A DNA stretch of 64,000 bases from Snodgrassella alvi (GTDB lineage: Bacteria; Pseudomonadota; Gammaproteobacteria; Burkholderiales; Neisseriaceae): positions 1-64,000 of the forward strand of contig NZ_MEIK01000040.1 of assembly GCF_002777855.1 (NCBI RefSeq), written 5' to 3'. This document shows, piece after piece, positions 14,601-26,503 of the stretch (its first letter is position 1; each line of letters opens with the position of its first letter). The notes beneath the pieces are model-generated. The model saw only the letters and a list, made by a program, of their open reading frames with translations, searched no databases and was not told the DNA's origin. Both the position numbers and the translations under genes were made by a program.

Positions 14601-15469
14601 ACGTACCGATTAAAACCGCGCGTGCCCTGCTTAATATCGAAGACAGCACCACCGTACCGATTATCCGCAATCCGCAGGTAAGCGAAGAAACCGAAGCCGT
14701 TTTCTACTTCCCCGGCTGCGGCTCCGAACGCCTGTTCAGCCAGATAGGATTAGCCACACAAGCCATGTTATGGCATGTAGGCGTACAAACCGTACTGCCA
14801 CCTGGTTACCTTTGTTGCGGCTATCCCCAAACCGCCGGCGGCAACAAAGACAAAGGTGACAAAATCACCATGGACAACCGCGTCCTCTTCCACCGCGTGG
14901 CCAACACCCTCAACTATCTCGATATCAAAACCGTAGTTGTAAGCTGCGGTACCTGCTACGACCAGCTCAGCGATTACCATTTCGACAAAATTTTCCCCGG
15001 CTGCCGCGTACTAGATATCCACGAATACTTGTTGGAAAAAGGGCTGAAACTTGATGGCATCAAAGGTCAGCAATACCTGTATCACGACCCTTGCCATACT
15101 CCCATCAAAACCACCCAGCCAATCAAAGTAGTTAACGAACTGATGGGACAAAACATACCCCTGTCCGACCGCTGCTGCGGTGAATCCGGCATGTTTGCTG
15201 TCAACCGCCCCGATATCGCCACACAAGTACGTTTTCGCAAACTGGAAGAAATCGAAAAAGGCAAAGCCAAATTGCCGCAAGGCGAACCAGTAAAAATACT
15301 CACCAGTTGCCCCGCCTGCCTGCAAGGGCTTAGCAGATATACCGACGATGCCAATATCAAAGCCGATTATGTCGTGATAGAAATGGCCAAGCATATACTA
15401 GGCGAAAACTGGCAGGATGAATTTGTGCAAAAAGCCAGCAATGGGGGGATTGAACGAGTGTTGTTGTAA
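11639..15469 (+). CDS. DUF3683-containing FAD/Fe-S oxidoreductase (D-lactate-dehydrogenase-like)
   Basis: 1276 residues. In order: an N-terminal DUF3683 region (about 1-170); an FAD-binding type 4 domain ([13 protein letters not shown], about 195-210); a FAD-oxidase C-terminal domain with [12 protein letters not shown] (about 687) and [10 protein letters not shown]; two ferredoxin-type 4Fe-4S motifs, [11 protein letters not shown] (about 810) and [12 protein letters not shown] (about 872); and a heterodisulfide-reductase-like CCG region with FPGCG (1024), CCGYP (1059), HDPCH (1149) and CCGESG (1178). This is a fusion of a GlcD/Dld-like flavoprotein with a GlpC/GlcF-like iron-sulfur protein, expected to oxidise a 2-hydroxy acid, probably D-lactate, and pass electrons to quinone. 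Stands alone. Codons are much more G+C-rich than the flanking DNA, as expected for a highly expressed core gene. Confidence 0.92.
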
Positions 15470-15484
15470 CTAAACGCAAAAAAC

Positions 15485-15519
15485 CTCAGGTCGCGCCAAA
15501 TAAATGAACGCAACCTGAG
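15485..15519 (+). terminator. hairpin after the DUF3683 gene
   Basis: CTCAGGT(C)GCG ... CGC(A)ACCTGAG, a stem of ten pairs with one mismatch, 16 bases after the stop. There is no good T-run, so it may protect the transcript end rather than terminate by itself. Confidence 0.5.
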
Positions 15520-15853
15520 AAATTAACACAGCCCATATTTTCAACGCTTATCCTTCTTTTCAATCAATACCCACTACAGATAATCATCAAAAATAAAAGC
15601 AAAACAGCTTAAAAAGCACACAAAATAAACAAAACGAATAATATCATTTACTTATTAGAATGCCCACTATTTCAATATTCAAACTATTTATGCATATATA
15701 ATAGCATTAGAACTAAAACAATTTTTACTGAGTAAAGACAAACATACTCAATTAAAAATAAATTAGGTCAACTAAATAACAACAAAATATTATTAACGAT
15801 TGAAAACATAAACAAAATACATAAGCTATAATTTAAAAGAAAGGCCAATTACT

Positions 15854-16309
15854 GTGAAAAACTTCATGAGAAAAAAATTAATTATTTCTCTAGCCGCCAT
15901 ATTAATCATTTTAGGATGCTATCGAATGTATAAAATAAGATTATTACATCAAAATTTGATACATGAAATGCAAACTAGAACCAATAAATACGGATTTATC
16001 AACGTTACATTCAACATTACAGGGCAAAATGGAGTTGTCGTCATTGCTCCAGTAAACTGTCTCCCAGAACGTGCCAAAAAAGCCGAAAATCTGGCTGAAC
16101 AACTCCGAAGTAAAAACATACTAGTAAACCTAGCAAATGAGTTTAATTTCAGAGCGGAATTGCTACCGGACACAAAACCAAAAAAGATAGAGAAAATATT
16201 TCAAATGATTAAATATGTAATCAAAAAACCTGCACCAATAGTATCTGTAAACGGCAAATTGAAATCCAATCCTACAATAGAAGACATCCTGAACGAATTG
16301 GAAGGATAA
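15854..16309 (+). CDS. small membrane-anchored hypothetical protein, possibly thioredoxin-fold
   Basis: 151 residues from a GTG start (AGAAAGG upstream; an ATG four codons later is an alternative). One N-terminal membrane helix (about residues 8-24), then a soluble part outside the membrane. The end, APIVSVNGKLKSNPTIEDILNEL, and the earlier VVVIAPVNCLPERAKKAENLAEQLRSKNI resemble the layout of glutaredoxin-like proteins (beta strand, Cys at a helix start, late cis-Pro-Val strand), but there is no CxxC. I do not recognise a family. A+T-rich and flanked by long A+T-rich spacers. Confidence 0.6.
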   Translation: MKNFMRKKLIISLAAILIILGCYRMYKIRLLHQNLIHEMQTRTNKYGFINVTFNITGQNGVVVIAPVNCLPERAKKAENLAEQLRSKNILVNLANEFNFRAELLPDTKPKKIEKIFQMIKYVIKKPAPIVSVNGKLKSNPTIEDILNELEG

Positions 16310-16997
16310 AGAATAACCAATTGAAATATAAAATATTTAATCCTTTAAATCTAATTTCGTATCCTCGTCTGAAAAGCAGATAATCATATAATTTATCTGA
16401 ATTAATTCACCACTCAATATACTATCAATCATTACTTAAAATTAAGTTCCTACCTGACTGAATTAAACATTTCGATTTACAGCTAATACTATACGTTCCA
16501 TTAAAACATCTTTTATAAATTCATAAAGGAAAGTTGTATATAAAAAAATATTTACAAATAAATAAGAAGATTCATCAGACCAATAGGTAAAATATCTTTT
16601 GATTTGTAACCTAGTAGGACTAAATGAATCTACCTATAATCCCAAAAGCAAAGCAGAATACGAAATTATTGAAATAATTTATCATATACAGAAAATAACC
16701 ATGTAAATCAAATTGTTGCAGCAAATCAGAAATTAAATTTTTTAGATATTTATCAAAATAATTATTTAAGATTTAAGATTTTACGCTAAAAACATATTCA
16801 ATCATTTATTTATATTAAAATTTATATAAAAATATTTATTAATACATAAAAACCTTGTAATAAATTAACTTTTAAATATTAAAATATTTCAGCAAAAAAA
16901 TATAAATAATAGTTTTCAAAAAAATTTTTTTAAATTAAGTATTGTTTATATCACAATCTCACTATATAATTTTAAAAATTATCATTATTTTGATACT
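16310..16997. other. very A+T-rich spacer with a possible IS3-type transposase remnant
   Basis: Nearly 690 bases with no complete gene. On the + strand, bases 16602-16706 translate to a 34-residue open stretch (CNLVGLNESTYNPKSK, then AEYEIIEIIYHIQ) that resembles the helical segment before the catalytic domain of IS3-family OrfB (consensus like 'GLxRSTYY...K'). No ends or target duplication were seen. The match is weak. The rest is featureless A+T-rich DNA leading into the methyltransferase island. Confidence 0.35.
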
Positions 16998-17390
16998 ATG
17001 GAACCTAACTATCATTCTATCTCATACCTTGCTAATGCTATTAATACAGCTTTAAAAGTTAAAAAATTAACTATTCGTAAATGTGTTAATTTATATAACA
17101 ATCGATATTTAAAAGAAATTAAAAAAGGAGAAAAACAATTATTAAACAAAGATTTCATTCAAAGAGTTAGATACAAAAAGTATAAAGTTGTAAGTCAAAG
17201 AATTATAGATTTATGTATTTTTTTAGACATTGATCCCTATGAACATTCTAAACAATCAGCAATTTATCCTGAGCTAGAAAATATCAAAAATTTGATACAT
17301 AAACATCCTGAATTTCGCGATCATTTAAGTAACCTGATTCAAAACATATACGATTTTGCTAATGATACTTTAAAAACAAAAAAGATTTAA
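16998..17390 (+). CDS. small hypothetical protein at the head of the methyltransferase operon
   Basis: 130 residues, basic (many Lys/Arg) and mostly helical by composition, with no signal peptide. It starts 13 bases before the cytosine methyltransferase gene ends its ribosome site, so the two are co-transcribed. A role as a DNA-binding controller protein, as often precedes restriction-modification genes, is plausible (LTIRKCVNLYNNRYLKEIKK could form a helix-turn-helix-like element), but I cannot identify a family. No clear ribosome site precedes the ATG. Confidence 0.55.
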   Translation: MEPNYHSISYLANAINTALKVKKLTIRKCVNLYNNRYLKEIKKGEKQLLNKDFIQRVRYKKYKVVSQRIIDLCIFLDIDPYEHSKQSAIYPELENIKNLIHKHPEFRDHLSNLIQNIYDFANDTLKTKKI

Positions 17391-17403
17391 AAGGAAAAAA
17401 TAT

Positions 17404-18672
17404 ATGAGATTTATTGATTTGTTTGCAGGACTGGGCGGATTCCATGTTGGATTAGCAAATAATGGTCATAAATGTGTATTTGCTTGTGAAATAGATTCAG
17501 AGTTACGAGAACTATATAAATTTAATTATGGTATAGACCCATTTGATGATGTCACTAAAATAGATGTCACTAAAATACCAAACCACGAAATAATTTGTGC
17601 AGGTTTTCCTTGTCAGCCTTTTTCTTTAGCCGGTCGAAAAAAAGGAGCTGAATGTCCAAAATCTGGAAAATTGATTGAACATGTCATCAGAATAGCCGAT
17701 TACCATTCTCCAAAATTTATTTTGTTAGAAAATGTACCGAATATTGTTACCATAGCAAATGGAACCTTTTGGAAATATTTAACAAATTCTTTTGAGAATA
17801 TCGGGTATAAAATCTATCACAAAATTATTTCGCCAGTTGATATTGGTATTCCTCAGAATCGAAAAAGAATTTTTGTAATCGGTGTTAGAAAAGATATAGA
17901 TAAAGGAATATTTAATTGGCCTAAAACAACCGGATTAAAAACAGTAAATTTATCAAAAATACTCAATAAAAATAACATTCATAAAAACCTGGAGAGCCCA
18001 AAAACAAACCTTTTGAAGCACTGGCAAAAACTATTGGATCAATTATCAATTTCTGAGCTACGTTCAACTTCTATAGTAGCTCCAGAGTTTGGTGCCACAT
18101 ACCCACATAATTTTTCCAAATTACCTTTTGCAGAAATGAAAAAATATAAAGGCGCTTATGGACAAAGCTTAACAAAATGCAAGTCTTGGAAAGAAATAAT
18201 GCAAAGAATGCCAAATTATACAAAGAAAAAAAATAAAATTCCAGATTGGTTATTAAAATCTGCTTTATATACAAGAGAACTTTATACACAAAATTCTGAC
18301 TTATGTATGGAATGGTCTAAAACCCTAGAGAAAAAAAATAATAGCTGGCAAATACTTGAATGGAGAGGGAAATTCAATGATTTAAATATCTATAATCATT
18401 TAGTGCAATTCCGTGCATCAGGGATCAGAATATTACAGGCTAATGTTGCTCCATCATTAATTTCAATGACTCCCACGCAAATTCCAATAATACCTACAGA
18501 AACTCGATATCTTTCCCCTTACGAGGCAGCAAAATTACAGAATCTACATAAGTTAAAGTTACTCCCTCATGGAACTGTAAAATCATTTAAAGCATTAGGT
18601 AATGCTGTCAATGCAAAGATTATTGAAGTTATTACCAGGAATCTAAATATAGATTATGGTATATTAAGATAA
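17404..18672 (+). CDS. C5-cytosine-specific DNA methyltransferase
   Basis: 422 residues with the C5-MTase motifs: motif I DLFAGLGGFHVGL (5-17), motif IV GFPCQPFSLAGR with catalytic Cys70, motif VI ENV (109-111), motif VIII QNRKRIFVIG (151-160), and motifs IX-X near the end (SPYEAAKLQN ... ALGNAVNAKII). Between motifs VIII and IX lies a target-recognition region of about 210 residues, larger than in minimal enzymes. It methylates cytosine at carbon 5 in a specific site. AAGGA ribosome site. The operon has no recognisable restriction endonuclease; the next gene, 23 bases on, is a GHKL ATPase. Confidence 0.93.
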   Translation: MRFIDLFAGLGGFHVGLANNGHKCVFACEIDSELRELYKFNYGIDPFDDVTKIDVTKIPNHEIICAGFPCQPFSLAGRKKGAECPKSGKLIEHVIRIADYHSPKFILLENVPNIVTIANGTFWKYLTNSFENIGYKIYHKIISPVDIGIPQNRKRIFVIGVRKDIDKGIFNWPKTTGLKTVNLSKILNKNNIHKNLESPKTNLLKHWQKLLDQLSISELRSTSIVAPEFGATYPHNFSKLPFAEMKKYKGAYGQSLTKCKSWKEIMQRMPNYTKKKNKIPDWLLKSALYTRELYTQNSDLCMEWSKTLEKKNNSWQILEWRGKFNDLNIYNHLVQFRASGIRILQANVAPSLISMTPTQIPIIPTETRYLSPYEAAKLQNLHKLKLLPHGTVKSFKALGNAVNAKIIEVITRNLNIDYGILR

Positions 18673-18695
18673 ATTAAATTAAAGGAGTAAAATAA

Positions 18696-20477
18696 ATGGG
18701 TTTAGAGCAAAAAAAAATTGATGTATCACCCGATATGCAATTTTATACTTTATTAGATAGCTATCCTTACACGGTTAAAAATGCTTTATCAGAATATATT
18801 GATAACGCATTAGAAGCATATCGAACAGCAAAAAAAAACTTAATTCAGAATCTTCCTAAAATTCTTACTATAACGATAAGTATTAAGAAAAATCGAATAA
18901 TTATAAATGACAATGGTACTGGTATAGCTGAATCAGATATACAGAGGGCAATGAAACCTGCGCTTAAACCAAAAGAACAATCTTTAAGTGAGTTTGGGAT
19001 AGGAATGAAAGCAGCTTCATTCTGGTTTGGCCAAAAATGGACACTAAACAGCTATCCTGTAGATGGCACTCAACCTTTTTCATTAAAATTTGATTTAAAT
19101 GAACTTCTTAAAAAAGGGTTACATGAAATACCTCTTAATCCAATAACAAATAGAAGTTATAGTGGGGTTGAAATCATTCTAGAAAATTATAAACGCGAGA
19201 TTGATGAAAATCATGCCAAAAGGATATGGAAAGAATTACAAGAAACATATCAGCTATTTTGCTCAAGAAAAGATCCTCAACCTATTCTTAATCTGATACT
19301 TCAATACAATGATAAAACCTTAGAAAAAGAAGATTTTTCCAAAATTACTGTAACAAATGAGTCTTTAATTTTTCCAGTTTGTAAATATCATAAAAAATGT
19401 TTATATGTTATCGGAGAAAATATTGAGTGGAAAAAAAATATAGAGTTTGAATTTAATAACAAAAAAGTTTACGGATTTATTTCATTGGGTAAAAAGTCAA
19501 GCCAAACGGAAAATCCTGGGTTGCGGCTATTCAGATTTGGTAGATTGATTAAAGGTACAAGCGAAGCTCATTACCGCCCTACAAATTTAGTTGGAACTTC
19601 AAATAAACATGCTCCCTCAAGATTTTACGCAGAACTACATTTAGATGGTCAAGAAATCAGCAATTCAAAGGGAGAATTCATTTTTGATGAATACCTCTTT
19701 TTAGATAAATTAAAAAACATACCTGAAGTAATGAAATTTATCGAACAAGCTGAAAATTATAGAAGTAAATTGGTATTAAACAACGATTATAAGAAATTTG
19801 AAACATATGAAAAATACGAAGAATTTTTAAAAAGGACAAATACAATTACAAAAAAAAATAATTCTCAATACAAAGACAAACTGCAATATAAACAAGATAT
19901 TACATTTAGTACACGACAGGATGACACTAATATTCAATTAGATTTTACTCAGGAAACTAAAGATTCAAACAATAAATCTAACATTAATAATATAAATTCA
20001 GATAACTTATCCAATTCAGAGCCAAATAATGATTCTTTGAAGGAAATTCAGATTGCAGATCATATTGAATATTCTGAGGCGTTATATCAAAATTTAGAAA
20101 AGTTAGGAGTTAGCAAGCTCCCAAAATTTTATTTTTCTCTTTGTAAAATATCACTATCAAAAGATCCTTTAGTTGCTTATGTGTGCGCATGGTCAATACT
20201 AGAATCCTTAAAAAATTTATTAAGTGATAATACACAGCAATCTGATTTATCTGCTTTTTATAAAAATAAATTATCTAAAATGATTCCAAACAAAAGTGAT
20301 AAGAATGATAAGAAAAAATATGAGGTTCCAATTACAGAGATTCATCACAAAGGAAATTTATGTAAACATGATGGTGAATATGAAATTATAAATGCATTAC
20401 AATTAAATAATGACTTTAGAATACTTGAAAGATTACTTATATTTTGTATAAATGAGAAATTAAATCAAAGTAAGTAA
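18696..20477 (+). CDS. MORC/MutL-like GHKL ATPase associated with a cytosine methyltransferase
   Basis: 593 residues. The N-terminal GHKL (HSP90/MutL-type) ATPase domain is clear: N-box SEYIDNALEAY (32-42), G1 box NDNGTGI (71-77) and G2 box SEFGIGMKAAS (98-108). A second domain follows (about 210-345, with FISLGKK and GLRLFRFGRLIKG) corresponding to the S5-like fold of MORC/MutL proteins. A low-complexity N/S/D-rich linker (about 400-460) leads to a helical C-terminus (465-593) with EIHHKGNLCKHDGEY. No HNH, PD-(D/E)XK or HKD nuclease motif was seen. Prokaryotic MORC-like ATPases in restriction-modification operons were described by Iyer, Abhiman and Aravind (2008). It is expected to act with the preceding methyltransferase in DNA defence. 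A terminator follows at 20572. Confidence 0.85.
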   Translation: MGLEQKKIDVSPDMQFYTLLDSYPYTVKNALSEYIDNALEAYRTAKKNLIQNLPKILTITISIKKNRIIINDNGTGIAESDIQRAMKPALKPKEQSLSEFGIGMKAASFWFGQKWTLNSYPVDGTQPFSLKFDLNELLKKGLHEIPLNPITNRSYSGVEIILENYKREIDENHAKRIWKELQETYQLFCSRKDPQPILNLILQYNDKTLEKEDFSKITVTNESLIFPVCKYHKKCLYVIGENIEWKKNIEFEFNNKKVYGFISLGKKSSQTENPGLRLFRFGRLIKGTSEAHYRPTNLVGTSNKHAPSRFYAELHLDGQEISNSKGEFIFDEYLFLDKLKNIPEVMKFIEQAENYRSKLVLNNDYKKFETYEKYEEFLKRTNTITKKNNSQYKDKLQYKQDITFSTRQDDTNIQLDFTQETKDSNNKSNINNINSDNLSNSEPNNDSLKEIQIADHIEYSEALYQNLEKLGVSKLPKFYFSLCKISLSKDPLVAYVCAWSILESLKNLLSDNTQQSDLSAFYKNKLSKMIPNKSDKNDKKKYEVPITEIHHKGNLCKHDGEYEIINALQLNNDFRILERLLIFCINEKLNQSK

Positions 20478-20571
20478 TAACTAAAAATTTAATTATAAAA
20501 CTCAAATTTATATTTGAATAAATTTATTTCATATTATTATATTAAAACTAAAAAATAAAATTTTTTCTGTT

Positions 20572-20606
20572 AAAAAGCATAATACGTTTGCTGATTATGC
20601 TTTTTT
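20572..20606 (+). terminator. terminator after the GHKL ATPase gene
   Basis: AAAAAGCATAAT / ATTATGCTTTTTT, a stem of at least 8 bp with a 10-base loop and T-runs on both strands, so it may work for both directions. Confidence 0.8.
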
Positions 20607-20983
20607 ATAAAATTTCAAAGAAAGCTCTTTATGATTAAATCTAATTGCTTTTAATATTGTTCATTCAATTTCAGCAAGTGAAGTGTAATGTTAATTAAAT
20701 GAATAAATTTATGTATTTTTTCGTTATTCTACTATAAGGTTTTTACAGGTAATTTAATGAGGTTGAGATAAAATGACAAATATATAGTTGAACCCTATGC
20801 ATTGCTTGAATATTGTGTTTTTAATTAAAGGGATTAAATTTTTGCCGGCATTATAAATATATTCTTTGTTTACAGCATTTTGATTGCATTAAGCATCGAT
20901 ATGGTGCATCTCATTTTAATAAAATAATTATCAAATAATTGAAACTTATATCTAATAAAATGTCAAATAAATGATATATACAA
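20607..20983. other. A+T-rich spacer
   Basis: No open frame, repeat or hairpin of note between the terminator of the ATPase operon and the degenerate end of the lipoprotein array. Confidence 0.5.
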
Positions 20984-21442
20984 TCAAGAATAACCACTTG
21001 CCTCAGCGTCTAATAATAATTGGAACGTTCCATCCGGTTTTTTTTATAATGCGCATAAATCTCCTCCATGTTTTTTGGGTTGATTTCTGATTTTCGTTAT
21101 TTCCTTTTTCAGTTGAAATGAAACTAATAGTATAAAAAATATTATTTTGGAAATGATAATTAAAATATAGACATTATTGATTTTTTACATAATAAGGCTC
21201 TGAAGAATAGAAATAATTTTTTTTCCACAATTGACCAATCCCTGACTGGAAAACCTCTGTAGTCAAAATACTATATTTTTTGCTGTAGAAAAATTTTTAT
21301 TTTCAGGGATACTAATACATAGTTGTCCATCTTTTTTTAGTGTAATATCAGGGGTATAAAATACATTGTTGTGCAATATGCAACCTGCTATCAAAGCTAT
21401 TGTAAGGACTAATGGCAAAATACGAAAAAGATTTTTATTCAT
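20984..21442 (-). pseudogene. broken fourth copy of the immunity-like lipoprotein
   Basis: On the minus strand the start (ATG at 21442) and the first 40 or so codons match the three intact copies: lipobox GC, then ILHNNVFYTPDI and KKDGQ...CISIP. After CISIPENKNF the frame shifts and meets a stop, although homology to the rest of the gene continues down to about 20984. Its spacer to the next copy is exactly 58 bases, as in the rest of the array. A decayed member of a tandem array. Confidence 0.8.
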
Positions 21443-21500
21443 TCTCCTTGTGTCCTAATAAATATCATCCAGATAATGTGCTATATTGCTTCAATCAAAA

Positions 21501-21962
21501 TTAAGAATAATCACGTGCTTCTTCGTCTAATAATAATTGCAAGGTTCCATCAGTTTTTTTTATGATTCTCATATCCCTAGTCCAATCTTTATTTGTCGAC
21601 TTCTGAGATTCATCATTCCCTTTTTCAGTTGAAAAGAAGCTAATAGAATAAAGAATATTAGTTTTAAAACGATAATTAAAATATAAGCATTGTTGATTTT
21701 TGACATAATACGGCTTTTTATAATCTTGAAAATTCTTTTTCCAGAGGTATCCAACCCTTCTCTGGAATACATATAAGCTTAAAATATTAAATTCTTTTTT
21801 TCGTCGGAAAAAATCTTCATTTGCGGGTATACTGATGCAGGGCTGGCCATCTTTTGTTAATACTATATCTGGCGTATGAAATACATTACGATGCAATATG
21901 CAACCTGTTATCAAGACTGCTGGAAGAAATACTGGCAAAATTCGCAAAAGTTTTTTATTCAT
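21501..21962 (-). CDS. putative T6SS immunity periplasmic lipoprotein, copy 3
   Basis: 153 residues. Signal peptide with lipobox LITGC (Cys at 21), then HTPDIVLTKDGQPCISIPANEDFFRRKKEF, a pattern I associate with the 'putative T6SS immunity periplasmic lipoprotein' family (N-terminal lipoprotein, 'KDGxxCxSIP' near the start, a WKK element in the middle). Array copy closest to the pseudogene. Relative to its neighbours it is most divergent around the middle (FQRRVGYLWKKNFQDYKKPYYV). Mature protein should be anchored in the periplasm, so its presumed target toxin acts there. Function by family and context. Confidence 0.75.
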   Translation of the reverse strand: MNKKLLRILPVFLPAVLITGCILHRNVFHTPDIVLTKDGQPCISIPANEDFFRRKKEFNILSLYVFQRRVGYLWKKNFQDYKKPYYVKNQQCLYFNYRFKTNILYSISFFSTEKGNDESQKSTNKDWTRDMRIIKKTDGTLQLLLDEEARDYS

Positions 21963-22020
21963 TCTCCTTGTGTCCCTATGAATTTCATACAGGTAATGTG
22001 CTATATTGCTTCAACCAAAA

Positions 22021-22482
22021 TCAAGAATAATCACGTGCCTCAGCGTCTAATAATAATTGCAACGTTCCATCTGGTTTTTTTATGATTTGCATATATCTCA
22101 TCCATTCTTTATCAGTAGATTTATTATTTTCTTCATTGCCTTTCTCATTTGAAAAAAAACCTATATGGTAGGGAATATTATTCTGAAAATGATAATTAAA
22201 AATCAGGCATTGATCATTTTGAACATAATAGGGTTTTGCAGAATGAAAATAATTTTTACTCCAAAGTTCTCCTACTCCTACTTGATAAACATATAAATAT
22301 GAAATATCAAAGTCTTTTTTTCGTCGGAAAAAATCTTCATTTGCGGGTATACTGATACATGGTTGTCCATCCTTTTTTAATTCAATTTCGGGCGTATAAA
22401 ATACATTGTTGTGCAATATGCAACCTGTTATCAAAGTTATTGTAAGGACTATTGGCAAAATGCGAAAAAGATTTTTATTCAT
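22021..22482 (-). CDS. putative T6SS immunity periplasmic lipoprotein, copy 2
   Basis: 153 residues, lipobox LITGC at Cys 21, then FYTPEIELKKDGQPCISIP. It starts exactly 520 bases from the equivalent base of the next copy. The central region (YVYQVGVGELWSKNYFHSAKPYYV) and the charged block EKGNEENNKSTDKEW vary among copies, while the N-terminal third and the last 20 residues (KKPDGTLQLLLDAEARDYS) are nearly constant. Such a pattern suggests diversification against different toxin variants. Confidence 0.75.
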   Translation of the reverse strand: MNKNLFRILPIVLTITLITGCILHNNVFYTPEIELKKDGQPCISIPANEDFFRRKKDFDISYLYVYQVGVGELWSKNYFHSAKPYYVQNDQCLIFNYHFQNNIPYHIGFFSNEKGNEENNKSTDKEWMRYMQIIKKPDGTLQLLLDAEARDYS

Positions 22483-22540
22483 TCTCCTTGTGTTCTAATA
22501 AATATCATCCAGATAATGTGCTGTATAGCTTCAATCAAAA

Positions 22541-22999
22541 TCAAGAATAATCACGAGCCTCTTCGTCTAATAATAATTGCAACGTTCCATCTGATTTTTT
22601 TATTATTCGCATATACCTCATCCACACTTTCTTTGTAGATTTTCTATTTTCTTCATCCCCTTTTTCTGTAGAAAAAAAACCAATATCATATAAAATATTA
22701 GTCTGGAATTTATAATTGAAATATAAACATTGTTGGTTCTTTACATAATAATAATTTTTAGAATCTAAAAAATTTTTGCTCCAGAGTTCCCCTACTCCAG
22801 TTTGATAGACATCTAAGCCTAAAATATTAAATTCTTTTTGGCGACGGAAAAAATCTTCATTCGAGGGGATACTTATGCAAGGTTGGCCATCTTTTTTTAA
22901 TACAATATCCGGGGTATAAGGCCTTATACAACCTGTAATCAGGATTACTAGAAACAAAATTAATCCCCTGCATGGATATTTTGTTATCAACCTCTTCAT
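22541..22999 (-). CDS. putative T6SS immunity periplasmic lipoprotein, copy 1 (effector-proximal)
   Basis: 152 residues. The signal peptide differs from the other copies (MKRLITKYPCRGLILFLVILITGC, Cys at about 24) and the short HNNVF segment after the lipobox is missing, but from YTPDIVLKKDGQPCISIP onward it is the same family. It is the copy nearest the metallopeptidase gene (181 bases), so it is the natural cognate immunity candidate. Ends with the shared LQLLLDEEARDYS. Confidence 0.75.
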   Translation of the reverse strand: MKRLITKYPCRGLILFLVILITGCIRPYTPDIVLKKDGQPCISIPSNEDFFRRQKEFNILGLDVYQTGVGELWSKNFLDSKNYYYVKNQQCLYFNYKFQTNILYDIGFFSTEKGDEENRKSTKKVWMRYMRIIKKSDGTLQLLLDEEARDYS

Positions 23000-23180
23000 A
23001 CTTTATTCCTTATTGATTTTCGAATAAAAATAGACTTGAAAGCCTTCTAGTTAACAGTTAATGATTGAAATATAGGTTAAAAATATCAAACTGCAAAGAT
23101 AAACCTTATTCTGGTAGACAAATTCATTATTAATTGTATTTTATGATCATTTTCATTTTCTATTTGGTAAAAATTCTGAT

Positions 23181-23813
23181 TCATCCAAATATTGCTTTTT
23201 TATCTTTAGGATTTTTTAGAAATAAGCATAAATTATCTTCATACATTTTAAGCCAGTATTTTTGTACAAGTTGTATACTTTTCGGATAACTATCTTTAAA
23301 CTCTTCATTTGTAATTTCTTTCCATACATTAAAACCATAATTTTTCAAAGCATAATAATCTGCAATAATGGAAGCCTGCTGCTCCATACCGTAATTAGAT
23401 AATAGTGTGCCTTCTTTCAACACATATTCGTAATTTGCGATTAAACTGAATGCGCCACGCAAGGCTACCTGCATGCCCATCTGATATTGCCAAACATGGG
23501 TCATTTCATGCATAAAAAAATGTTTTCTTCTAATCGGTTCTATGGAATAATCTCTTGAATAATATTCATGCGGCCAGTATATTCCACCAAATGGTGTGAT
23601 CGCATATTTACCTTGATGCGGCAGCAAGATGCCATCCCGAACTCGTACTTGTGATAATACTATGGCGCTTTTAAAAACAGAGGTTACCATACTCATTTCG
23701 CCTGGAGTTAACAGACGAGATTGGGACTTGATATGATTACTTGCAGTTTCGTAAAGAAGATCTAATATTAACCCAGAAGCACCGCAACAACTTTGTGTCA
23801 GTAAGTTTGCCAT
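23181..23813 (-). CDS. HExxH zinc metallopeptidase, probable Rhs/VgrG-associated effector
   Basis: 210 residues, no signal peptide. Zinc-peptidase motif HEMTH at 102-106, followed by VWQYQMG; a likely third ligand is Glu144 in YGMEQQASIIADYYAL. The upstream block LSQVRVRDGILLPHQGKYAITPFGGIYWP is typical of small proteins annotated 'vgr related protein' or Rhs-associated peptidases in many Proteobacteria. The absence of a signal peptide, plus an array of periplasmic lipoproteins directly downstream on the same strand, suggests a toxin delivered by T6SS into the periplasm of rivals and countered by those lipoproteins. No vgrG or PAAR gene is in the window. Role inferred. Confidence 0.8.
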   Translation of the reverse strand: MANLLTQSCCGASGLILDLLYETASNHIKSQSRLLTPGEMSMVTSVFKSAIVLSQVRVRDGILLPHQGKYAITPFGGIYWPHEYYSRDYSIEPIRRKHFFMHEMTHVWQYQMGMQVALRGAFSLIANYEYVLKEGTLLSNYGMEQQASIIADYYALKNYGFNVWKEITNEEFKDSYPKSIQLVQKYWLKMYEDNLCLFLKNPKDKKAIFG

Positions 23814-24298
23814 CAGATTACCCCTCTATGGTTATGTAACATTCTAAATTCGAAAATCAGTATTTTTCTGATTTATTTTTCATCCTATTCTAATTCAATC
23901 CAAGATGTATTTGGCTTGAATTTATCTAGATGAAATTAAATTTAGTGATAAATATCAAAATGAAATTAATTCTAAAATGATATGCTTATTTGGTATAAAA
24001 AAAGCTATATTATTGTGTGATTAGCAGAATATTGAGTACTTTTGTTGATTCACTGTTCAATCATCTCAGTATTAATTTGGTAGAAACAAGGGATTATTTC
24101 TGCTAAAAAATATTTCGACAAAATGTTATTTTATGAATAGCAGCGCTACTGGAAAATTGTGCTAATTAGTTATATTTTAAAAAATTTTCACAAAAATCTT
24201 AGAAAAATAAGAAAGATTAAGCTGGAAACAGAATTGCGAATGTAAATTATATAGATAGAGTTAAGCGAGAAAATAACTTTACTCAATGAATAAAATAT
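23814..24298. other. A+T-rich spacer between the effector and copper genes
   Basis: About 485 bases without a credible open frame or strong hairpin. The effector promoter should be at its left end (transcribed leftwards). Confidence 0.45.
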
Positions 24299-26503
24299 TT
24301 ATTCCAGCCCGCTTTTTTTCAAGCGTAAAGCATTCAGCAATACCGAAATGGAACTCATGGCCATGGCCGCACCTGCAATCACGGGGCTAAGCAAGCCGAT
24401 GGCGGCTAGCGGAATGCCAAGTATATTGTAGAAAAAGGCAAAAAACAGATTCTGTTTGACGACGCGCACGGTAGCATGAGCTAAAGCCAGCGCATCGGCT
24501 ACCTGTGTAACAGAGTGGCGCATTAGCGTAGCTGAAGCAGTATTGGTGGCGACATCAGCACCGCCATACATGGCAAAGCTTACATCGGCGGCGGCTAATG
24601 CAGGCGCATCGTTTATACCATCGCCTATCATGGCTACTACTTTACCCTGTTGCATAAGTTGGCGAACTGCTTCGGCTTTCGCGCGGAGATTCATTTCTGC
24701 ATGATAATGATTAATTCCCAGCTGCTTAGCAATGTATTCTACGACGCTGTGCTGGTCGCCGCTCATAATATAAATGTCAATATGTTGTTGTTTTAGGCGC
24801 TGAATAGCTTGAACGGTATCTTGTTTAAGTGCATCGGCTATAGCAAAAACACCCTCTACTTTATCATTGATAGCTACGACTACAATGCTGGCTATCCGCC
24901 AGATTTCTTGTTGTTTTAATTCTTCTGGGATGTTAAAGCTGCAATAAGCGGGATTGCCCACTTTGATTGTGCCATATCCCTCTATCTGTGCTTGTGTACC
25001 CTGCCCGATATCGCTATGGCTGTTGAAAGCCTTTAAAATGGGCAATTGCTGCTTTTGTGCTGCTTGAATAATAGCCAGTGCCAGCGGATGGGTGGTGAGC
25101 TCTTCTACGGATGCAGCCAGTTGTAGTATTTTTTGTTGGCTGTAGTTACTTTCTGGCGCCTGCCATTGCGCAACTATTTGCGGTTGGCCGCTGGTTAAGG
25201 TACCGGTTTTATCCAGTACAACAGTGCCTACCTGACTGGTACGTTCGAGTGCGGCGGCATCTTTAAACCAGACACCATAGCGGGCAGAACGCCCCATGCC
25301 CACCATCATAGCAGCAGGTGTAGCCAGCCCCAGCGCACATGGGCAAGCAATAACCAATACTGCCACGCCGCGGGTAACAGCTTCGTTAATACCATTTCCC
25401 AACCACCAATTTAATAGAAAGGTTAATACAGCTATGGCAACTACAGTAGGAACAAATACCATGGATACTTTGTCTGCCAGCCGTGCAATTGGTGCTTTGC
25501 TTCCTTGAGCTTGTGCCAGCGCCTGCATCATGTCGCCCAGCAGGGTCTGGCTGCCTAGGGTCTGTGCCTGATAGGTGATGCTGCCATTGCTGATAAGAGC
25601 ACCAGCAAGGACTTTGTCTCCGGTTTGTTTTAATAAGGGTTTGGATTCGCCGGTAAGATAGCTTTCGTCACACCACGCTTCACCACTGTGCACGAGGCCA
25701 TCGGCGGCAATGCGATTACCGGCATTGGTTTGTAGAATGTCACCCGTTTGTATCTGGCTTAAGGGAACTTCTTGCCAGCCGTTTTCTGTCTGCTTGCGTA
25801 CCATTTTCGGCGTAAGCTGCAATAACAAGCTCATGCTGTTGAGACTCTGTTTTTTGGTACGTTGTTCGAGATATTTTCCCAGTGAGACAAAAGCTATCAC
25901 CATCACGCTGGCTTCAAAATAGATATATTGATGGGCATGGCTTTGATGGTTAAAGAGCATAATAGTGGAATAAATCCAAATGGCGAGTGTGCCCAGAGAC
26001 ACGAGTACATCCATATTGGCCACGCCGCCTTGCAAGGATTTGATGGCACTGGTGTAAAAAGGCCAAGCAAAGCCAAGCTGGATAATGGTGGCAAGGATAA
26101 ACTGCCACAGCGGCGGCAGCATCCAATGCTGACCTATTAACATGCCAAGCATGCCAATAATAAAGGGGATGGCAATGAGCCAGATTATGGCCAACCGCCA
26201 CGATATACCGGTATGTTTACTGGAATTAGCCTCGGCCAGTGCATTGAGACTGCTTTCACTGGCAGGGGTTGCTTTGAAACCAGTTTTAGCTACCATTTGA
26301 ACAATATCTTCTGTACTTAGCAGCTTGCTGTCAAAGCGGGTTTGTAATTCATCACTGGCAAAATTAACATCAGCAGTCAGTATACCCTGCTGCCGACGCA
26401 GTACTTTTTCTATGCGGTTGGCACAAGCTTGGCAATCCATACCCTCAATGGCAAAACGCGCTGAGGTTGTTTGAGAACTTTTTGTAAGCAAGTTTTCTTC
26501 CAT
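24299..26503 (-). CDS. copA: copper-exporting P1B-type ATPase
   Basis: 734 residues. One N-terminal heavy-metal domain (GMDCQACANRIEKV, about 18-31), eight predicted membrane helices, the CPC metal-transport motif (IACPCALGLATP, about 388), the phosphorylation motif DKTGTLTSG (about 430) and the hinge GDGINDAPALAAADV (about 626). CPC together with one HMA domain is typical of Cu(I) exporters that move copper from cytoplasm to periplasm. It lies 45 bases downstream of copZ on the same strand and opposite a cueR-like regulator. Confidence 0.95.
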   Translation of the reverse strand: MEENLLTKSSQTTSARFAIEGMDCQACANRIEKVLRRQQGILTADVNFASDELQTRFDSKLLSTEDIVQMVAKTGFKATPASESSLNALAEANSSKHTGISWRLAIIWLIAIPFIIGMLGMLIGQHWMLPPLWQFILATIIQLGFAWPFYTSAIKSLQGGVANMDVLVSLGTLAIWIYSTIMLFNHQSHAHQYIYFEASVMVIAFVSLGKYLEQRTKKQSLNSMSLLLQLTPKMVRKQTENGWQEVPLSQIQTGDILQTNAGNRIAADGLVHSGEAWCDESYLTGESKPLLKQTGDKVLAGALISNGSITYQAQTLGSQTLLGDMMQALAQAQGSKAPIARLADKVSMVFVPTVVAIAVLTFLLNWWLGNGINEAVTRGVAVLVIACPCALGLATPAAMMVGMGRSARYGVWFKDAAALERTSQVGTVVLDKTGTLTSGQPQIVAQWQAPESNYSQQKILQLAASVEELTTHPLALAIIQAAQKQQLPILKAFNSHSDIGQGTQAQIEGYGTIKVGNPAYCSFNIPEELKQQEIWRIASIVVVAINDKVEGVFAIADALKQDTVQAIQRLKQQHIDIYIMSGDQHSVVEYIAKQLGINHYHAEMNLRAKAEAVRQLMQQGKVVAMIGDGINDAPALAAADVSFAMYGGADVATNTASATLMRHSVTQVADALALAHATVRVVKQNLFFAFFYNILGIPLAAIGLLSPVIAGAAMAMSSISVLLNALRLKKSGLE

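What the first reader, a model, noticed from the sequence alone, without database searches (positions are those of the whole stretch)
16998..20477. Cytosine methyltransferase with a MORC-like GHKL ATPase and no recognisable nuclease
Seen in sequence: three co-directional A+T-rich genes with 13- and 23-base gaps: a small basic protein, a C5-MTase with all motifs, and a 593-residue GHKL ATPase. MORC/MutL-like ATPases in restriction-modification operons are known (Iyer, Abhiman, Aravind 2008), usually with a nuclease domain or partner. Here no PD-(D/E)XK, HNH, HKD or Vsr motif is visible, so either the ATPase C-terminus (465-593, EIHHKGNLCKHDGEY) is a new effector domain or the restriction step is non-nucleolytic. 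This is my best candidate for an undescribed defence variant.
Basis: partly seen in the sequence, partly recalled or inferred. Interest (0 to 1): 0.75.

Follow-up and report, generated by a model that had tools for sequence, protein, structure and literature searches.

The report
Methylase with a MORC–HEPN fusion
Three adjacent genes form a probable mobile anti-phage system in which a DNA-marking enzyme is paired with a MORC-type ATPase that ends in a HEPN-like domain, the fold of many RNA-cutting suicide toxins; it probably shuts the cell down when unmarked DNA is sensed instead of cutting that DNA.

Summary
In detail: three co-directional A+T-rich genes (130 aa; C5-methyltransferase, 422 aa; GHKL ATPase, 593 aa) lie at 16998-20477. 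The ATPase is a MORC-type GHKL-S5 protein (best structural match SMCHD1, Z 23.5; MORC signature in 7/7 homologues). Its C-terminus (451-593) is not an orphan domain. It matches the C-terminal half of some PADLOC PD-Lambda-5_A models (3.6e-29), and its AlphaFold model (pLDDT 89) retrieves mostly HEPN structures. An invariant GNxxKH motif and a helix-2 glutamate lie where the HEPN active site lies, with K/R-x5-H instead of strict Rx4-6H. The same domain caps two architectures: MORC ATPase with C5-MTase (this window), and ParB-like protein with adenine MTase (PD-lambda-5). The fusion recurs in six other genomes, three of them with the full three-gene order. In congeners the same spot holds Dsr2, Lamassu, CBASS or IetAS, or is empty: a defence hotspot. 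Best reading: methylation-gated abortive infection, a new variant of the GHKL-HEPN restriction-linked systems predicted in 2013 (paraMORC-Ymh), with another HEPN family shared with PD-lambda-5. RNase activity, sensing of unmethylated DNA and phage defence are inferred, not shown.

The parts
16998..17390 (+). Small basic protein (130 aa), conserved first gene; possible XRE-like/controller regulator (by eye only)
   Evidence: 46-47% identical to the first gene in G046 and Aggregatibacter L024, 30% in G358, 28% in L048; no family or structure match
17404..18672 (+). C5-cytosine DNA methyltransferase (422 aa)
   Evidence: PF00145 1.2e-65, TIGR00675 9.6e-61; 65% identical to the G046 and Aggregatibacter homologues along the whole length
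18696..20477 (+). MORC-family GHKL ATPase with C-terminal HEPN-like domain (593 aa)
   Evidence: PF13589 2e-17; PD-Lambda-5_A C-terminus 3.6e-29; AlphaFold model
18726..19781 (+). GHKL + S5 ATPase module (residues 11-362)
   Evidence: VIA-align: SMCHD1 Z 23.5, MORC3 20.6, Hsp90 about 20, MORC4 19.6, MORC2 18.7; ExxxN, DNxxG, GxGMK and GhXhhpXXRhl motifs
20046..20474 (+). HEPN-like C-terminal domain (residues 451-593)
   Evidence: AlphaFold pLDDT 89, pTM 0.84; top VIA-align rows are HEPN superfamily, best Z 9.2
20202..20204 (+). E503, invariant acidic residue in helix 2 of the HEPN-like domain
   Evidence: conserved in 16/16 homologues; helix 41-59 of the domain model
20349..20369 (+). K552-GNLCK-H558: K/R-x5-H variant of the HEPN Rx4-6H motif (GNxxKH invariant)
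   Evidence: GNxxKH in 16/16; residue before G is K or R in 7/7 MORC fusions; at the end of the third main helix

Best explanation
A methylation-gated abortive-infection system. (1) The C5-methyltransferase marks host sites [domain shown; activity inferred]. (2) The MORC-type GHKL-S5 module binds ATP, dimerises at its N-terminus and clamps DNA; unmethylated sites, or loss of the methylase, on invading DNA trigger or stabilise closure [family shown by motifs and fold; sensing inferred]. (3) Closure pairs two C-terminal HEPN domains through a flexible linker into a composite active site (K552, N554, K557, H558, E503), which cleaves host or phage RNA and stops the infection [fold and motif position shown on a model; RNase activity inferred]. 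(4) The small first gene times expression, so that methylation precedes the ATPase [inferred]. The module moves between defence hotspots and mobile elements.
For: HEPN fold: model; about 20 of the top 22 rows are HEPN or HEPN-related, including MntA-HepT toxins and the AbiA C-terminus, with AbiV and Csm6 lower in the list. Motif geometry agrees with the HEPN description in PMC3710099 (motif at the end of helix 3, acid in helix 2). The same domain caps ParB-like PD-Lambda-5_A proteins beside a D12 adenine methylase; PD-lambda-5 is experimentally anti-phage and described as 'RM+Abi' (PMC9519451). MORC ATPase. Conserved operon. Defence hotspot: the same spot holds Dsr2, LmuAB, CBASS cyclase + 2TM effector, IetAS, or nothing in congeners. 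GHKL-HEPN in RM neighbourhoods was already predicted to work like PrrC/RloC.
Against: The strict catalytic arginine is absent: K here, and N, L, Y, S or A in several ParB-fused relatives, so the domain may not cut RNA. HEPN sequence similarity is not significant in Pfam or against a Ymh profile; best Foldseek E is 1.2, and Z about 9 is below the tool's caution level of 13 for helical bundles. The CTD matches only 2 of the 26 or so PD-Lambda-5_A models, so the phage data for E. coli PD-lambda-5 may concern a different C-terminus. No phage or methylation data exist for this operon.
Confidence: 0.6

Rival explanations
1. Non-nucleolytic restriction: the HEPN-like domain is catalytically dead and serves dimerisation or nucleic-acid binding, and the MORC module itself entraps and compacts unmethylated phage DNA, silencing it as eukaryotic MORC/SMCHD1 do.
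For: Closest structures are SMCHD1 and MORC; the strict Rx4-6H arginine is missing and the position varies in ParB fusions; no DNase anywhere in the operon.
Against: Residues N, K, H and E in the active-site position are invariant in 16/16, which a dead domain would not need; HEPN families with a displaced R have been argued to be active (PMC3710099); the same domain is fused to an unrelated ParB-like sensor.
Confidence: 0.2
2. A DNA-cleaving RM system whose nuclease is supplied in trans or is an unrecognised activity of the C-terminus.
For: Sister operons dcm-GHKL-Z1-DUF4420 carry a PD-(D/E)XK gene; one relative (L026) has an overlapping 239-aa HNH-like gene downstream.
Against: No nuclease gene is conserved next to the homologues; none of the three proteins has a DNase domain; the C-terminal model looks like HEPN, not PD-(D/E)XK, HNH or HKD.
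Confidence: 0.12
3. Not defence against phage, but a stabilising or conflict module of mobile elements, with MTase as antidote and the MORC-HEPN protein as toxin.
For: Found beside conjugative-transfer-like genes (G046, L024) and TniB/TniQ-like genes (L028, G358) (assigned by eye).
Against: In the window's own genus it sits in a chromosomal spot shared by Dsr2, Lamassu, CBASS and IetAS, with no integrase or conjugation gene seen among the adjacent ORFs.
Confidence: 0.08

Closest known systems
PD-lambda-5 (Vassallo et al. 2022, PMC9519451; PADLOC PD-Lambda-5_A/B)
   Same: Same C-terminal domain family (two PADLOC A models, E about 1e-29); a DNA methylase partner; found in related bacteria (a full PD-lambda-5 in G044).
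   Different: PD-lambda-5_A has a ParB-like N-terminus and a D12 adenine methylase partner; here a MORC ATPase and a C5 methylase. PD-lambda-5_A C-termini themselves vary (L020).
paraMORC-Ymh HEPN fusions in RM neighbourhoods (Anantharaman et al. 2013, PMC3710099)
   Same: GHKL ATPase with a C-terminal HEPN domain beside RM genes; proposed PrrC/RloC-like function.
   Different: Different HEPN family: no Pfam Ymh match, profile comparison E 0.41, GNxxKH instead of RNPxAH; the ATPase carries the MORC signature, whereas the 2013 fusions were reported with paraMORCs.
dcm-GHKL-Z1-DUF4420 operons (MZA-like; Iyer et al. 2008 MORC operons)
   Same: Nearest relatives of the GHKL module outside the fusion group; C5 methylase just upstream.
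   Different: They encode a Z1 ATPase and a PD-(D/E)XK protein in trans and lack the HEPN-like domain.
VcSduA / paraMORC3 Shedu (PMC12137116)
   Same: GHKL ATPase fused to a C-terminal effector, anti-phage.
   Different: Effector is a DUF4263 PD-(D/E)XK nuclease and there is no methylase; no such domain was detected here.
PrrC/RloC with type I RM
   Same: Works-like model: NTPase-controlled HEPN RNase tied to methylation-based self/non-self discrimination.
   Different: ABC ATPase and a separate HsdMSR in PrrC; here the sensor ATPase and effector are one protein and no restriction enzyme is present.

Membership tests
MORC family (Iyer 2008) | GHKL motifs for ATP binding | tested here: met
   E33xxxN37, D72NxxG, GIGMK; PF13589
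MORC family (Iyer 2008) | C-terminal S5-like domain with GhXhhpXXRhl motif | tested here: met
   GLRLFRFGRLI; present in 7/7 homologues; fold match to SMCHD1/MORC over residues 11-362
HEPN superfamily | four-helix HEPN fold | tested here: met
   predicted model pLDDT 89; top rows HEPN, Z 9.2-6; caution: helical bundle, Foldseek E 1.2
HEPN superfamily | motif at end of helix 3 plus acidic residue in helix 2 | tested here: met
   K552-H558 ends helix 536-558; E503 in helix 491-509
active HEPN RNase | strict Rx4-6H motif | tested here: not met
   K-x5-H in the window; K/R-x5-H in 7/7 MORC fusions, variable in ParB fusions
active HEPN RNase | RNA cleavage | not testable with these tools
   needs biochemistry
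PD-lambda-5 | A protein with ParB-like N-terminus | tested here: not met
   N-terminus is GHKL; only the C-terminal half matches
PD-lambda-5 | B protein: D12 adenine methylase | tested here: not met
   partner is a C5 methylase
PD-lambda-5 | shared C-terminal domain of the A protein | tested here: met
   PDLC04006 3.6e-29, PDLC04000 4e-27
paraMORC-Ymh | Ymh (PF09509) HEPN domain | tested here: not met
   no Pfam match; no Ymh in the genome; hhalign E 0.41
dcm-GHKL-Z1-DUF4420 (MZA-like) | Z1 ATPase and PD-(D/E)XK partner genes | tested here: not met
   no such ORF next to the operon, judged from the ORF list; present in L022
classical type II RM | restriction endonuclease | tested here: not met
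   no DNase domain in the operon

The most novel reading that the evidence does not exclude
A defence effector is traded as a cassette between two unrelated self/non-self sensors: a MORC clamp with cytosine methylation and a ParB-like protein with adenine methylation. In the MORC version, absence of 5-methylcytosine would trigger a non-canonical (K/R-x5-H) HEPN effector, a bacterial counterpart of methylation-reading MORC/SMCHD1 silencing that kills or arrests instead of cutting DNA.
Probability: 0.45. Interest if true: 0.72.

Novelty: new variant of a known kind. Interest (0 to 1): 0.55.

Why it matters
It would give a minimal (two- or three-gene) system in which a MORC-type ATPase, the bacterial cousin of SMCHD1 and MORC2, must read DNA methylation and act without a DNase, making the question of how MORC proteins couple to DNA methylation testable in bacteria. 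It also warns annotators: PADLOC models score this protein as PD-Lambda-5_A through the shared C-terminus alone.

Tried and rejected
Orphan or new effector domain: rejected, as the domain lies inside PADLOC PD-Lambda-5_A models and has a HEPN-like model. PD-(D/E)XK, HNH, HKD or Vsr in the operon: no match by Pfam, PADLOC or NCBIfam. Ymh HEPN: not supported. Sequence search of the CTD against solved structures: nothing. Small protein: no match in Pfam, PHROGs or PDB, so the XRE-like reading stays by eye. Homology of the second PD-Lambda-5_A C-terminus (A9) with this CTD: in-register but weak, E 0.047; L048 C-terminus against A9: not significant. No E. coli copy by DNA similarity; no plasmid copy covering the CTD. 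Rfam: nothing in the window.

Full report
Observation. The three genes are where the finding puts them: 16998-17390, 17404-18672 and 18696-20477, all on the + strand, with gaps of 13 and 23 bases. The block is 28.5% GC next to a 53.6% GC gene. The methylase matches PF00145 at 1.2e-65 and the ATPase PF13589 at 2e-17; the small protein matches nothing.

The C-terminus is not unknown. PADLOC gives residues 341-592 of the ATPase a match to the C-terminal half of two PD-Lambda-5_A models (3.6e-29 and 4e-27). PD-lambda-5 is an experimentally found E. [quoted passage not shown]). A bona fide PD-lambda-5 is present in a member of the same family, G044: a 441-aa A protein (6.7e-160) plus a D12 adenine methylase. 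It shares only the C-terminal domain with the window protein.

Two architectures, one domain. A scan of 84,980 genomes with the C-terminal domain found eight loci and a viral scan one more. They fall into two kinds: MORC-type GHKL + domain beside a C5 methylase where the contig reaches it (Aggregatibacter L024, Poribacteria L025, gammaproteobacterial MAG L026, Alteromonadaceae L028, with G046 and G358 from whole-genome searches and the window, seven in all); and ParB-like + domain beside a D12-type methylase (Mucilaginibacter L027/L029/L030, alphaproteobacterial L031, viral L032, phage Pkon1, G044, G470, G608). The first kind is rare: 2 of 83 genomes in the window's family, and 3 more genomes with the domain among 398 sampled across the phylum. 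In the domain tree the MORC fusions and the Mucilaginibacter ParB fusions share one well-supported side, against the other ParB fusions, so the domain has been exchanged between the two sensors at least once; the direction is not settled.

Operon conservation. The order small gene - C5 methylase - GHKL-HEPN is complete in the window, G046, L024 and G358; L028 lacks the small gene, and L025 and L026 are cut by contig ends. Methylases are 50-65% identical, small proteins 30-47%.

Fold of the domain. AlphaFold on ten homologues gives pLDDT 89 and pTM 0.84, with main helices 41-59, 68-79, 86-107 and 118-142. In the VIA-align list the first 22 rows are nearly all HEPN superfamily (MntA-HepT toxins up to Z 9.2, YutE 8.3, AF_0298 7.2, AbiA 6.7, sacsin 6.5), with AbiV 5.5 and Csm6 5.1 lower down. 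This is a structural lead, not proof: Foldseek's best E is 1.2, Z under 13 is common for helical bundles, and Pfam finds no HEPN family. [quoted passage not shown]). Here the invariant GNxxKH ends the helix before the last one and invariant E503 lies in the conserved helix two before it, in 16/16 homologues. The arginine itself is K in the window, K or R in all seven MORC fusions (giving K/R-x5-H), and variable in the ParB fusions.

The ATPase module. Residues 11-362 of the full-length model match SMCHD1 (Z 23.5), MORC3 (20.6), Hsp90 (about 20), MORC4 (19.6) and MORC2 (18.7). The MORC-defining motif GhXhhpXXRhl of Iyer et al. (PMC2292703) is GLRLFRFGRLI here and present in 7/7. The nearest relatives without the HEPN-like domain are in dcm-GHKL-Z1-DUF4420 operons. 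In GHKL trees the fusion group is one clade, but the window's GHKL is unusually divergent and may be closer to that of L048, which lacks the domain; long branches make this unsure.

Context. Downstream of the same FAD-oxidoreductase gene, congeners carry other things: Dsr2 in G006, Lamassu LmuA/LmuB in G008 (with the same pair of ORFs in G009 and G002), a CBASS cyclase with a 2TM effector in G003, IetA/IetS in G010, a PIN-TPR-GreABC-like protein in another strain of the same species (G1071), and only 174 bp between the flanking matches in G005. This is a defence hotspot with an empty version. Elsewhere the operon lies near conjugation-like genes (G046, L024) and TniB/TniQ-like genes (L028, G358), assigned by eye from the ORFs.

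Mechanism. From these parts the most likely function is methylation-gated abortive infection: the C5 methylase marks self, the MORC clamp senses unmarked DNA, and ATP-driven closure activates a HEPN effector. Shown: domains, motifs, operon, hotspot. Inferred: sensing, RNA cleavage, phage defence. The main rival keeps the clamp but treats the HEPN-like domain as non-catalytic, with restriction by DNA entrapment.

Novelty. Anantharaman et al. 2013 already reported Ymh-family HEPN domains fused to paraMORC ATPases in RM neighbourhoods and proposed PrrC/RloC-like action (PMC3710099). The kind is therefore known in prediction. What is new is the HEPN family, its sharing with PD-lambda-5, the MORC signature in the ATPase, and the conserved small-gene/C5-methylase operon. 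A search of the held papers for HEPN + GHKL + methyltransferase + anti-phage found none. Important caveat: only two of the many PD-Lambda-5_A models share this C-terminus, so the published phage data may refer to proteins with another C-terminus.

Noticed in passing
window 15469-24299 and loci L076-L084: Spot downstream of the FAD-oxidoreductase gene is a defence hotspot in the genus: Dsr2, Lamassu, CBASS, IetAS, a PIN-TPR-GreABC-like protein, or nearly empty (174 bp).
   Followed up: yes
window 20982-23000: Tandem array of about 520-bp units, three intact 152-153 aa lipoprotein-like ORFs on the - strand plus a degenerate copy; a longer array lies at the same place in G1071.
   Followed up: partly
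L048:5995-10609: Viral contig with a cousin GHKL gene split by an IS30-like insertion, convergent C5 methylase and small gene; its C-terminus (RNLLE...LHLSAHKG) resembles by eye the second type of PD-Lambda-5_A C-terminus, which would be a second effector exchange, but profile comparison was not significant.
   Followed up: partly
window 18696-19800: The window's GHKL module is only 32-33% identical to those of G046 and Aggregatibacter although methylase (65%) and C-terminal domain (48%) are much closer; it may be a mosaic with an L048-like GHKL (36-37%).
   Followed up: partly
L020 (Kosakonia plasmid), L011-L018: PD-Lambda-5_A proteins carry at least one other C-terminal domain type (RxxxE...H), so PADLOC's single name covers several effectors.
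   Followed up: partly
L026 and L028: Both operons lie beside a related 579-585 aa gene next to lipA-like, lipB-like and penicillin-binding-protein-like genes (by eye), suggesting a common insertion hotspot.
   Followed up: no
L026:1454-2173: Overlapping downstream 239-aa gene with CxxC...DH HNH-like pattern; possible extra effector in one relative only.
   Followed up: no
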